Source: Pseudonocardia sulfidoxydans NBRC 16205 (GTDB lineage: Bacteria; Actinomycetota; Actinomycetes; Mycobacteriales; Pseudonocardiaceae). Taken from it: a DNA stretch of 64,000 nucleotides. Made by a program: the position numbers and the translations under genes. The notes under the pieces are model-generated. The model was given only the letters and a program-made list of their open reading frames with translations. It searched no databases and was not told where the DNA came from. This document shows positions 13,645 to 19,152 of the stretch, in pieces. Every line of letters begins with the position of its first letter. Positions within the stretch are counted from its first letter, which is position 1. Where the stretch lies: assembly GCF_007989085.1 (NCBI RefSeq), contig NZ_BJVJ01000008.1, forward strand, positions 62,001 through 126,000, written 5' to 3'.

Positions 13645-16600
13645 TCAGCCGACGTCCGGCCCGATCCGCGCCAGCCCGAGGATGCGGGCGGCGGGCGTCC
13701 CGGGCCGGGCGCCGAACCCGAGCCGGATCGACCGTGCGGCGGCCTGCCGCACCAGGTCCACGATCATGCCGACGCCGGCGCTGGCCAGGTAGCCGACACC
13801 GTCGAGGTCGAGGTGCACCTCCTCGCCCGGGCCCACGGTGTGGAGCAGCGCGAGCAGGTCGGGACGCAGGTCGTCGACGGACGCGAGGTCGATCTCGCCG
13901 CTGATCTCGACGCGCGTCCGGCCCTGCTCGCGCACCACCTGCAGGCCCGGCGCGGCCGGAGCGGGACCGGGGTGCACCGGGGTGTCGTCGGCCGTCCCCT
14001 CGGGGACGATCACGAACTCGACGACGGTCCCGTCGGCCCCGTGGCGGATGTCGACGTCCCGGCCGAGGGAACGGATGAGGTCGAGACCCCGGCCGCGGTT
14101 CCCCTTGTCGACGGGCGCCGGCCGCCAGGTGCCGTGGTCGGCGACGACGACGTGCACCGCGCCGGCGGTGCCCGCCGCGACCCGGACGTCGACGGTGCCG
14201 GGGGCGTCCGGCGGGTAGGCGTGGTCGACGGCGTTGGCCGCGGCCTCGCCGAGCGCGAGCTGGAGGTCGTCGACGAGCAGCGGGTCCAGCGCCGCGAGCC
14301 GCGCCCACGCCGCGATCCGCCGGCGCAGCCCCCGCAGCTCGCCCGCGTCCGCGGGCACCTGCAGGTCGAGCGGGCCGGGAAGCAACCGGACCGCGACGTC
14401 GGCGACGTCGTCGAGATGGACGTCCTGCTCGGCGAGCCGTTCGAGCAGGCCGTCGACGAGCTGTTCCGGCGGGGCGTCGGCCAGTTCGGCGGCCGCCGCG
14501 CGCAACCGCTCCAGGCCGTCGTCGATCAGCTCGCCGCGGCGTTCGACGAGACCGTCGGTGTAGAGCAGCAGGGTCGCGCCGGGCCGGACGACGGTCGTCC
14601 CCTCCGTGTAGGGCGGCCTGCCCGTCATGCCCAGCACGGTCCCGTGGCCGCCCTCGAGGAAACCGGCGTCGGTGGCGTCGACCAGCAGCGGCGGCAGGTG
14701 GCCCGCGCGCGCCCAGCACAGCGTCCGGGTGCCCCGGTCGAGGATCAGGCAGGCCGCAGTCGAGGCCACCGCGCCGGGGATCCAACCGACGTAGCCGTCG
14801 AGGGTCTCGAGCGCCTGGGCGGGCGTGCGGCCCTCGCGCAGCGCCCCGGAGAGCGCCACCCGCAGCTGGCCCATGACCGCGGCGGCCGCGGCGCCCTGCC
14901 CGACGACGTCGCCCACGGCGAGCGCGATCCCGTCGCCACCACCGGGGATGCCGACGGGGAACAGGTCGTACCAGTCACCACCGGCCTGGACGCCGGCGGC
15001 GCCGGGGCGGTAGCGGGCGGCGACGGCGAGCCCGTCGAGCGGGACGACCTCGCGCGGGAGCAGGCTGCGCTGCAGGACGGCGGCGATCTCGTGCTCGGCC
15101 TCGTGCAGCCGGGCCCGGTCGATGGCCTGGGCGCACTGGGCGGCCACCGTGAGCAGGGCGGTGCGGGCCTCGTCGGACAGCGGGGCGGCGGTGTCGGGGA
15201 ACCGCAGCCCCAGCGCACCGAGCGTCGCCCCGGCGAGGACGAGCGGCACCGCGACCTCGTCGGGGAGATCGATCTGCCCGGCCCGCAACGTCCGGCCGCG
15301 CCAGGCCTGTTCCGAGCCCTCCCCCACCCACACCGGCCGGCCGGTCCGCGACGCGTGGGCCAGGGGATGCCCAGCGCGGAGCGGCACCCGCGCCACGTCC
15401 GCCGACCCGGACGTGGCGAGGACCTCCAGCAGCCCCTCCTGGACGAGCACGACGGCGGCCTCCTCGGCCCCGAGGTCGTCGGCGTGCTGCAGCATCACCT
15501 GCCCGACCTCGGCGGGGGTGACCGCCCGCGACAGGGCGGCGACCACGGCGGTGAACTTCTCCGCGGCCCGGCGGGCGTCGCTCTCGGCGGCCAGCAGCTC
15601 GGCCCGGCGCAGCGCCTCGGCGCCCTGCTCGGCCAATGCCATGACGGCGGTGCGCTCGACGTCGGTGAACACCCGCTCCTCGACGAACGCGATCGACACG
15701 ACGCCGATGCAGCGGCCCGCGCTCAGCAGCGGCACCGACGACACCGACGCGTACCCGTAGTCGCTGCGGACGAGGTCGCGGATGCCCAGGTAGCGGGTGC
15801 GCCAGTCGTCGTCGGTCTCCACCCACATCGGCACGCCGGCGCGGACGGCCTCCGCCGTCGGGTCCTCGGAGTCGGTCGGCAGGGTGGTCCAGTCGCGCTC
15901 GACGCGCGGGTCCCAGCCGCGCAGCGCCAGCGCCTCCAGGACGCCGTCGGCGCGCAGCTCCCACACCCCGGCCGCGACGGCCCCGGTGAGCTGCTGGAAC
16001 TGTTCCGTCGCGACCTCACCCACGCGCAGCGGCGTCGGCGCGGCCGACAGCGCCGCGGTGGCCTGCTGCAGCAGGGTGAGCCGTGCGGTCGTCGCCTGCT
16101 CGCTGGCGAACAGCTGGGCGTTGTCCAGCGCGACGGCGGCCCGTCCGCCGATCTCGACGAGCAGCGCGAGGTCGTCGTCGTCCTGCGGCGCGGCGGGCGC
16201 GGTCCGGCCCGCGACGAGCACCCCGGCGATGCGGCCGCGCGCCGCCAGCGGGACCAGCGCGACGCTGCGCACCCCGAGGGCGTCCCAGCGCTCCCGGTGC
16301 TCCGGCGACCCGTCGGCGAGGAACCCGGCGTCGCCCGGCGCGACCAGCCGCGGGGAGGCCGCGACGTCGAGCAGCCGGTGCGAGTCGGCGTCGATCAGGG
16401 CGAGGAGTTCCGCGTCCCGGGCTGCCACGGCCCGGTCGTCGGCGGTGACGACGAGCCCCGCGAGATCGGCCACGCCCTCGTCGACCAGGGCGCGCACGAG
16501 GACGTCCCGGCGCTCGTCGACCGTCGACAGCGCTTCCATCGCCGCCCCGACGTGGGCGACGAGCCGCTGCCGTTCCTCCTCGCGGACGCGGGCGTCGATG

Positions 16601-19152: not shown

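What the first reader, a model, noticed from the sequence alone, without database searches (positions are those of the whole stretch)
13645..19152. A whole phosphorelay and partner-switching circuit in one 1835-residue protein
Histidine kinase, receiver, three more GAF sensors plus a PAS, SpoIIE-type phosphatase, RsbW-type kinase and STAS antagonist are all in one chain. Normally the RsbU/RsbW/RsbV-like parts are separate proteins that switch partners with a sigma factor. Here the STAS Ser, the kinase that would phosphorylate it and the phosphatase that would reverse it are covalently joined, so switching could be internal and driven by the receiver state. No sigma factor gene is adjacent.
Basis: partly seen in the sequence, partly recalled or inferred. 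Interest (0 to 1): 0.78.

Follow-up and report, generated by a model that had tools for sequence, protein, structure and literature searches.

The report
One-chain kinase–phosphatase–STAS stress switch
A single 1835-residue bacterial protein joins a two-component sensor to a complete serine-phosphorylation switch of the kind that controls stress sigma factors; the parts are real and look active, similar fusions recur in its relatives, and a shorter fusion (Rv1364c) is already well studied.

Summary
Window 13645-19152 (-) is one open frame of 1835 aa: PAS-GAF-HisKA-HATPase-REC-PAS-GAF-GAF-GAF-SpoIIE(PP2C)-RsbW-like kinase-STAS. Key catalytic residues and the acceptor Ser1791 are present and conserved in 22 of 22 STAS-fused relatives. 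It is no frameshift artefact: full-length relatives exist and dN/dS over the frame is 0.26-0.29.

"Normally separate" is only partly right. Rv1364c already joins PAS-PP2C-RsbW-STAS, and the present architecture recurs in Pseudonocardia, Actinomycetospora and Geodermatophilaceae.

Comparison supports a real circuit. In 45 of 49 STAS-less relatives a separate STAS gene lies directly downstream, with a start codon overlapping the kinase stop in 43 of 45. AlphaFold places STAS confidently against the kinase (pTM 0.87). In 12 relatives the kinase histidine or the kinase is lost; the receiver is altered in 10 of them, mostly only Lys to Arg, while the Ser switch stays intact.

"Phosphorelay" overstates it: one His-Asp step. 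The sigma target is unknown; no SigB/F-type gene lies in the window.

The parts
13645..19152 (-). whole gene, 1835 aa plus stop; hybrid histidine kinase fused to PP2C, RsbW-like kinase and STAS
   Evidence: open frame; full-length relatives; dN/dS 0.26 and 0.29 to two relatives
19157..19161 (-). SD-like GGGAG, 4 nt before the ATG at 19152
   Evidence: sequence read; inference that it is the ribosome site
18658..19065 (-). N-terminal PAS_4-type sensor, residues 30-165
   Evidence: Pfam PAS_4 66-162; family profile limits
18142..18651 (-). GAF sensor 1, residues 168-337
   Evidence: Pfam GAF_2/GAF stretches; limits
17428..18135 (-). HisKA + HATPase_c histidine kinase core, residues 340-575; phosphoacceptor His355 at 18088-18090
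   Evidence: Pfam; residues conserved 22/22 fused and 49/49 STAS-less relatives
16939..17292 (-). receiver domain, residues 621-738; Asp670 at 17143-17145
   Evidence: Pfam Response_reg; D627, D628, D670, S700, K722 conserved 22/22
16540..16917 (-). PAS_3 sensor, residues 746-871
   Evidence: Pfam; limits
16048..16518 (-). GAF sensor 2, residues 879-1035
   Evidence: Pfam GAF families; limits
15601..16035 (-). GAF sensor 3, residues 1040-1184
   Evidence: Pfam GAF 1047-1181; limits
15103..15537 (-). GAF sensor 4, residues 1206-1350
   Evidence: Pfam GAF_2 1212-1345; limits
14395..15075 (-). SpoIIE/PP2C phosphatase with its N-terminal linker helix, residues 1360-1586
   Evidence: Pfam SpoIIE; metal-site Asp residues conserved; nearest solved structure 3ke6_A, Z 30.5 over 337 residues, rmsd 7.5, for PP2C plus kinase
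14014..14367 (-). RsbW-like serine kinase (HATPase_c_2), residues 1596-1713
   Evidence: Pfam; fold matches UsfX 8ih8_C Z 17.1, 3ke6_B 16.9, RsbW 6m37_C 16.8, SpoIIAB 1th8_A 16.8
13936..14013 (-). variable kinase-STAS linker, residues 1714-1739
   Evidence: length and sequence vary among 11 proteins aligned
13657..13935 (-). STAS antagonist domain, residues 1740-1832; acceptor Ser1791 at 13780-13782
   Evidence: Pfam STAS_2/STAS; Ser in 49 of 50 aligned STAS-fused proteins; fold match 4qtp_B Z 14.6

Best explanation
The protein is a one-chain stress-signalling switch. Shown by sequence: an input half (PAS-GAF-histidine kinase-receiver), a run of PAS and GAF sensors, and an output half holding a PP2C phosphatase, its opposing RsbW-type serine kinase and their common substrate, a STAS domain. 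Inferred: signals set autophosphorylation of His355, and the phosphoryl group passes to Asp670 of the chain's own receiver. The receiver and GAF states change how the PP2C domains pair through the helix before the phosphatase fold, and so shift the balance between phosphorylation of Ser1791 by the tethered kinase and its removal by the tethered phosphatase. Unphosphorylated STAS is released to bind an anti-sigma kinase. The likelier partner is a separate RsbW-type protein, encoded next door in Geodermatophilaceae and elsewhere in this genome, so that a SigF-type sigma factor encoded elsewhere is freed. The sign of receiver control (activating or inhibiting the phosphatase) cannot be read from sequence; both signs are known in relatives.
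For: Domain order and residues. Of 49 STAS-less relatives with the same input half, 45 carry a separate STAS gene directly downstream, while 0 of 22 fused ones do; in 43 of 45 a start codon overlaps the kinase stop. So STAS is this kinase/phosphatase's own partner whether fused or not. AlphaFold of kinase + STAS alone gives pTM 0.87, mean pLDDT 91.8, more than I would expect of two freely tumbling domains. In 12 relatives where the kinase histidine or the kinase itself is gone, the receiver is altered at D628, D670 or K722 in 10 (K722R alone in 6); among 82 rows with the histidine, in 0. This fits a receiver fed by its own kinase. The PP2C and RsbW residues stayed intact in all 26 proteins examined, and the STAS Ser in the 25 that have STAS. 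9 of 9 Geodermatophilaceae fused genes are followed by a MEDS-HATPase_c_2 ORF. This genome has STAS, RsbW and SigF-type genes together on C9. Precedents: Rv1364c (PMC9138534), HsbR (PMC6482189), RsfSR and RsbKY (PMC10950880), coiled-coil control of PP2C (PMC12143880), read as passages.
Against: STAS is the least constrained domain: dN/dS 0.94 against L053 and 0.41 against L058, versus 0.26 and 0.29 for the whole frame. The Asp before the acceptor Ser, present in 44 of 45 separate downstream STAS genes, is Ala here and Ala, Pro or Ser in all 50 fused ones. The kinase-receiver parallel rests on 2-4 independent losses, the sign test cannot reach significance, Asp670 is kept in all ten proteins that lost only the histidine, and two of these ten (L203, L210) have no change at the five receiver positions. 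No coordinates or PAE were seen, so the docking mode is not known to be the SpoIIAA-SpoIIAB one. Kinase activity of Rv1364c is itself disputed: one cited paper is titled 'Loss of kinase activity' (reference seen). The partner, the sigma factor and every activity are inferred.
Confidence: 0.6

Rival explanations
1. The chain's own RsbW-like domain is the anti-sigma factor: it holds a sigma factor directly, and the tethered unphosphorylated STAS competes for the same face inside the molecule, as proposed for CrsR and considered for Rv1364c. No separate anti-sigma is needed.
For: Kinase fold closest to UsfX, RsbW and SpoIIAB, including chains from sigma complexes 1l0o and 8jzt. Sigma-70 ORFs lie near five relatives: directly upstream in L102, divergent and overlapping the frame start in L105, 1.6 kb downstream in the fused Pseudonocardia humida locus L082, and 3.4-4.2 kb upstream in L059 and L116 (Pfam). 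Rv1364c interacts with SigF in vitro (PMC7693655 passage).
Against: Strong SigB/F-type ORFs occur in only 5 of the 71 flanked loci, one of them fused. Mycobacterial RsbW2 is a kinase that does not bind SigF (PMC7693655 passages), so an RsbW fold does not prove sigma binding.
Confidence: 0.22
2. The tethered STAS is a worn or secondary part. The protein mainly acts as a regulated phosphatase/kinase on free STAS proteins encoded elsewhere, an RsbU plus RsbW in one chain.
For: STAS evolves fastest (dN/dS 0.94 to L053). The genome holds several free STAS genes.
Against: Acceptor Ser kept in 49 of 50 fused STAS domains. In the split clade STAS is kept as an adjoining, mostly overlapping gene. Confident kinase-STAS placement in the model.
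Confidence: 0.13
3. The frame is an artefact: misassembly or a frameshift joining neighbouring genes, or a decaying gene.
For: None found; a very long frame in GC-rich DNA was the reason to ask.
Against: Full-length relatives with 85% and 78% identity in the best segment; dN/dS 0.26-0.29 over the frame; catalytic residues present.
Confidence: 0.01

Closest known systems
Rv1364c of Mycobacterium tuberculosis (PAS-PP2C-RsbW-STAS, 653 aa)
   Same: Same output half in the same order in one chain; closest solved structure (3ke6); in print its STAS Ser600 is phosphorylated and dephosphorylated by its own domains (PMC9138534, PMC7693655 passages), though one cited paper reports loss of kinase activity (title only).
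   Different: No histidine kinase, receiver or GAF domains. In the output-half tree Rv1364c groups with another gene of this genome (L162, 731 aa), apart from the window protein's clade.
HsbR / CrsR type (PP2C + RsbW-like kinase, receiver in HsbR, separate STAS); SypE
   Same: One chain switches between kinase and phosphatase on a STAS protein, in HsbR under receiver control (PMC6482189 passages); SypE is a dual kinase/phosphatase of SypA (PMC8256260 passage).
   Different: Histidine kinase and STAS are separate proteins. That SypE has a receiver and another domain order is recalled, not seen.
RsfSR of M. smegmatis and RsbKY of Bacillus cereus
   Same: Histidine kinase and receiver-PP2C phosphatase control a STAS antagonist of a SigF/SigB factor (PMC10950880 abstract and passages).
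   Different: Parts are separate proteins, and kinase and STAS are not in the phosphatase chain. Phosphorylation raises phosphatase activity in RsbY and lowers it in RsfR.
STAS-less hybrid kinase-PP2C-RsbW proteins with an adjoining STAS gene (Mycobacteriaceae, Micromonosporaceae, Streptomycetaceae, Streptosporangiaceae and others)
   Same: Same input half and same PP2C-kinase pair.
   Different: STAS is its own gene; shorter middle sensor part; separate clade in both trees. No description was met in the paper searches.
OsaC of Streptomyces coelicolor
   Different: No histidine kinase named in the passages read; the hybrid kinase OsaA is a separate protein.

Membership tests
Rv1364c-type PP2C-RsbW-STAS fusion | PP2C, RsbW-like kinase and STAS in this order in one chain | tested here: met
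Rv1364c-type PP2C-RsbW-STAS fusion | PP2C metal residues, kinase N-box and acceptor Ser present | tested here: met
Rv1364c-type PP2C-RsbW-STAS fusion | auto-phosphorylation and dephosphorylation of the STAS Ser | not testable with these tools
   needs purified protein
Orthologue of Rv1364c | groups with Rv1364c in the output-half tree | tested here: not met
   Rv1364c groups with L162 of the same genome, 100/100 support, outside the window protein's clade; both have long branches
Hybrid histidine kinase | HisKA His, HATPase_c N/G boxes and receiver Asp/Lys in one chain | tested here: met
Hybrid histidine kinase | phosphotransfer from own His to own Asp | not testable with these tools
   only joint change of both in relatives was seen
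Phosphorelay (His-Asp-His-Asp) | HPt domain or second receiver in the chain | tested here: not met
   no such domain among the 14 Pfam families at E 0.1
Partner-switching system controlling a sigma factor | kinase, antagonist and phosphatase parts | tested here: met
Partner-switching system controlling a sigma factor | a sigma or anti-sigma partner that is bound and released | not testable with these tools
   needs pull-down; neighbourhood gives no answer: no SigB/F-type gene on contig C8, one near 5 of 71 related loci

The most novel reading that the evidence does not exclude
A complete His-Asp-to-Ser signal converter in one polypeptide: the chain's own receiver decides whether its tethered STAS sits on its own kinase or leaves for an outside anti-sigma factor. 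The family is a natural series of front-end rewiring in which the Ser switch is kept while the kinase histidine turns to Asp/Glu, the receiver changes after it, and finally the kinase is lost and the receiver loses its Asp. The same genome carries both an intact and a fully worn-down copy.
Probability: 0.4. Interest if true: 0.6.

Novelty: new variant of a known kind. Interest (0 to 1): 0.42.

Why it matters
It would let receiver control of partner switching be studied in one protein with fixed stoichiometry, with natural controls: split relatives with a separate STAS, and related copies whose histidine kinase lacks its histidine. It also links two signalling types, His-Asp and Ser/PP2C, in a protein family of actinobacteria that the paper searches made here did not find described. 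Against high interest: the output half is an already studied kind of fusion, and the input half is an ordinary hybrid kinase.

Tried and rejected
Frameshift or gene-join artefact: rejected by full-length relatives and dN/dS.

Loss of the acceptor Ser: considered because the motif is ASAG, not DSSG. Rejected because the Ser is kept and only the preceding Asp is replaced. The match of S1791 to SpoIIAA Ser58 and RsbV Ser56 rests on recalled sequences, plus the mention of SpoIIAA serine 58 in PMC8256260. I wondered whether loss of that Asp marks fusion. It does not do so alone, since two free STAS ORFs of this genome on C9 have GSAG and GTSG.

Short STAS tail as a fusion trait: rejected, the separate downstream STAS genes are as short (median 43 residues after the Ser in 45, against 49 in 22 fused).

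It was repeated with only frames whose third-position GC is high. 31 neighbour families recur in 4 or more of the 71 loci; one of them is the sigma-70 family, in exactly 4 (L059, L082, L102, L105). The others were looked at by eye only, not annotated one by one.

Sigma search: the profile was built by mistake with three wrong reading frames among its five rows. I rebuilt it with the right frames; the same five strong loci came out (E below 1e-80), plus weak or partial hits in L114, L126 and L080, so the count of 5 of 71 stands. L105 and L116 were then confirmed with Pfam.

Correlation of kinase loss with receiver change: strong by rows (10 of 12 against 0 of 82) but only 2-4 independent losses, so not significant on the tree. 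Six of the ten are K722R alone, a mild change. Truncated loci L136-L160 were left out of that count. One further kinase-less row, L168 (REC-PP2C-RsbW, 613 aa, own genome), has an intact-looking receiver and is a separate response regulator, so it was not counted among the 12. Four of the 82 have Glu for D627, which I did not count as a change.

Structure: the rows are mostly PP2C, so the STAS part was barely tested there; the smaller model tests it. The rmsd of 7.5 against 3ke6 means PP2C and kinase are placed differently in model and crystal. No claim of SpoIIAA-SpoIIAB-like docking is made, as no coordinates were available. The pTM expected of two freely tumbling domains (about 0.6) is my estimate.

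Papers: PMC2785613 and PMC6416909 (primary Rv1364c papers) are not held, so Rv1364c biochemistry is cited through passages of later papers. The two papers, the one and PMC7522486 were seen in listing only; PMC9239204 was seen in passages and describes other systems.
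Full report
CHECK OF THE OBSERVATION. The frame 13645-19152 on the minus strand reads 1835 residues without a stop. An SD-like GGGAG stands 4 nt before the ATG at 19152. Pfam gives 14 families in the order PAS_4, GAF, HisKA, HATPase_c, Response_reg, PAS_3, three GAFs, SpoIIE, HATPase_c_2, STAS (domain limits by family profiles are printed). NCBIfam matches 152 families; none of the 25 shown reaches its cut-off, the best being hybrid kinases. The nearest PDB sequence is 3ke6, the PP2C and RsbW domains of Rv1364c.

RELATIVES. A scan of genome contigs returned 78 loci (a capped list, 568 stretches encoded a relative). 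By profiles built here, 22 carry the kinase-receiver front end with PP2C, RsbW-like kinase and fused STAS; 49 carry the front end with PP2C but no STAS in the frame (one of these, L062, is cut by its contig end and also lacks the RsbW domain); 6 are hybrid kinases with a kinase output from proteobacteria, cyanobacteria and others; L075 is a fragment. The fused ones come from Pseudonocardia, Actinomycetospora, Geodermatophilus and Blastococcus. A search of 297 genomes of the same family with residues 1396-1835 found matches at E 1e-30 in 181. Of 25 same-genus genomes listed with a match (own included), I read long frames of 23. 18 have a frame with kinase-like domain, receiver, PP2C, RsbW-like kinase and STAS; in 10 of the 18 at least one such frame read keeps the kinase histidine (and the window). 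G192 has no fused STAS; G276, G293 and G259 have no kinase domain in the frames read; in G169 the frame read lacks the kinase, while a second frame of 2243 aa was seen there only in part.

CATALYTIC RESIDUES. H355, N476, D503, D627, D628, D670, S700, K722, the PP2C aspartates, E1636, N1640, D1672 and S1791 are the same in 22 of 22 fused relatives. The kinase, receiver and PP2C acidic residues are the same in 49 of 49 STAS-less ones, and E1636, N1640 and D1672 in 48 of 48. In a wider set of 50 STAS-fused proteins (window included), S1791 is Ser in 49 (Gly in L175), E1636 is Glu in 49 (Ala in L160), D1396 is Asp in 40 and Glu in 10, and D1393, D1415, D1533, D1581, D1582, N1640, D1672, G1687 and G1689 are invariant. 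The residue before the acceptor Ser is Ala, Pro or Ser in all 50, never Asp.

SPLIT RELATIVES. Of the 49 STAS-less proteins, 45 have a STAS ORF on the same strand whose domain begins 33-77 nt after their end; none of the 22 fused ones has one. The four without are L059 (STAS and RsbW-type ORFs directly upstream instead), L062 (contig end), L111 and L124. This is far from chance: the flanks of those 49 loci (750,201 bases in all) hold 11 STAS hits directly upstream and 13 elsewhere. In 43 of 45 a start codon overlaps the stop of the big gene (offset -1 or +2; exceptions L074 and L101; the script's own tally of 26 counts only the -1 type). Whether that codon is the real start was not tested. Overlap of this kind usually means coupled translation (established knowledge). 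So STAS is the partner of this kinase-phosphatase pair in both forms.

TREES. The PP2C-kinase tree (100 rows) separates a 46-row split clade from a clade holding the fused proteins of Pseudonocardiaceae and Geodermatophilaceae, with and without histidine kinase (and two unfused rows, L059 and L074). Rv1364c pairs with a 731-aa PAS-PP2C-RsbW-STAS protein of this same genome (L162). PMC9138534 calls Rv1364c found only in pathogenic mycobacteria (passage); the same domain order in L162 shows that the architecture is wider. The front-end tree (85 rows) shows the same 46-row split clade.

STRUCTURE. Residues 1360-1835 give pLDDT 89.3 and pTM 0.85; residues 1592-1835, kinase plus STAS, give 91.8 and 0.87. 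Two domains free to tumble should give a clearly lower pTM (my estimate, about 0.6), so a defined kinase-STAS arrangement is predicted; its geometry was not seen. The kinase part matches UsfX (8ih8_C, Z 17.1, 116 residues, rmsd 2.1), 3ke6_B (16.9, 113, 1.9), RsbW (6m37_C, 16.8, 114, 2.2) and SpoIIAB (1th8_A, 16.8, 123, 2.5). The STAS part matches a mycobacterial antagonist (4qtp_B, Z 14.6, 102, 2.0).

FRONT-END CHANGE. Among 95 distinct frames with PP2C, RsbW-like kinase and receiver (truncated loci L136-L160 left out before the count), 82 keep the HisKA His; all 82 keep D628, D670, S700 and K722 (four have Glu for D627). Ten have Asp (nine) or Glu (one) for the His. Two, L161 (this genome, contig C58, 1495 aa) and L196, have no kinase. 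Of these 12 the receiver is altered at D628, D670 or K722 in 10: K722R in six, K722T in L199, D628G in L179, and in L161 and L196 a pseudo-receiver with Glu, Ser, Asn and Thr in place of D627, D628, D670 and K722. So Asp670 itself is lost only where the whole kinase is lost. L168, the remaining row, is a separate REC-PP2C-RsbW response regulator with intact-looking receiver. The PP2C and RsbW residues are intact in all 26 proteins aligned, and the STAS Ser in the 25 that have STAS (L208 has none). This suggests that each receiver is kept for its own kinase, and that the Ser switch is useful without the His-Asp input. But 11 of the 12 lie in one clade of 15, the tree shows only 2 (starred branches) to 4 independent losses, and the sign test cannot reach 0.05.

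SELECTION. dN/dS over the whole frame is 0.26 against L053 and 0.29 against L058. Receiver, PAS_4, PP2C and histidine kinase core are among the lowest. STAS is 0.94 and 0.41 (93 codons), so it is the loosest domain in the pair with L053 and level with two GAFs in the pair with L058.

SURROUNDINGS AND PARTNERS. Convergent with the gene lies an OmpR-type regulator and HAMP-histidine kinase pair (11781-13588, +); upstream on the same strand is a MarR-type gene ending at 19262. There is no second RsbW-type match and no SigB/F-type match in the window. On contig C9 of the same genome a STAS ORF (94916), an RsbW-type ORF (97168) and a SigB/F/G-type sigma (97623, 283 bits against a cut-off of 234) lie together. 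All 9 fused Geodermatophilaceae loci are followed closely by an ORF that Pfam reads as MEDS-HATPase_c_2. In L054 such an ORF lies upstream. Among the 71 loci, strong sigma ORFs occur in 5 (L059, L082, L102, L105, L116; Pfam): directly upstream in L102, divergent in L105, a STAS-sigma70 ORF 1.6 kb downstream in the fused locus L082.

COMPARISON WITH PRINT. Rv1364c: PAS, PP2C, kinase and STAS in one chain, Ser600 phosphorylated and dephosphorylated by its own domains (PMC9138534 and PMC7693655, passages); a cited paper is titled as loss of its kinase activity. HsbR: receiver, PP2C and kinase in one chain acting on HsbA (PMC6482189, passages). RsfSR and RsbKY: two-component control of the phosphatase, with opposite signs (PMC10950880, abstract and passages). 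Coiled-coil linkers carry signals from PAS, receiver and GAF domains to PP2C dimers, Rv1364c and OsaC included in their models (PMC12143880, passages). Searches with the terms listed no paper that I recognised as describing a histidine kinase, receiver, PP2C, RsbW and STAS in one chain; the library lacks most subscription journals.

VERDICT. Real, complete and conserved; a new variant of a known kind. The novelty lies in the His-Asp front end joined to the known one-chain Ser switch, in the split/fused pair of forms, and in the front-end series, and not in the joining of RsbU/W/V parts, which is known.

Noticed in passing
L082:11423-12745 (+): In Pseudonocardia humida a single ORF joins a STAS-like domain (just under Pfam's cut-offs) to a sigma-70 factor (regions 2, 3, 4), 1.6 kb downstream of a fused relative and followed by another HATPase_c_2 ORF.
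   Followed up: partly
L161:1563-6047 (+) (G000 contig C58): Second long copy in the same genome, 1495 aa, with PAS, pseudo-receiver, PAS, three GAFs, PP2C, RsbW and STAS but no histidine kinase.
   Followed up: yes
L168:871-2709 (+) (G000 contig C7): Receiver-PP2C-RsbW protein of HsbR type (613 aa) followed by a separate RsbW-type ORF.
   Followed up: no
window 44000-64000: GC content falls to about 0.64-0.69 from 0.70-0.77 before it; among the ORFs checked there are a transporter, a hydrolase, alcohol and aldehyde dehydrogenases, an aconitase-family protein and an FAD oxidoreductase, like a catabolic cluster perhaps of other origin.
   Followed up: partly
window 1-2000 and 36001-40000: Unusually strong AT skew (0.24 to 0.30) compared with the rest of the window.
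   Followed up: no
L104, L109, L110, L112, L114, L115, L121, L123, L125, L126: These mycobacterial split loci have a second STAS ORF directly upstream of the big gene as well as the one downstream; 10 of the 11 upstream STAS (L059 counted) have GSAG where most downstream ones have DSAG.
   Followed up: no
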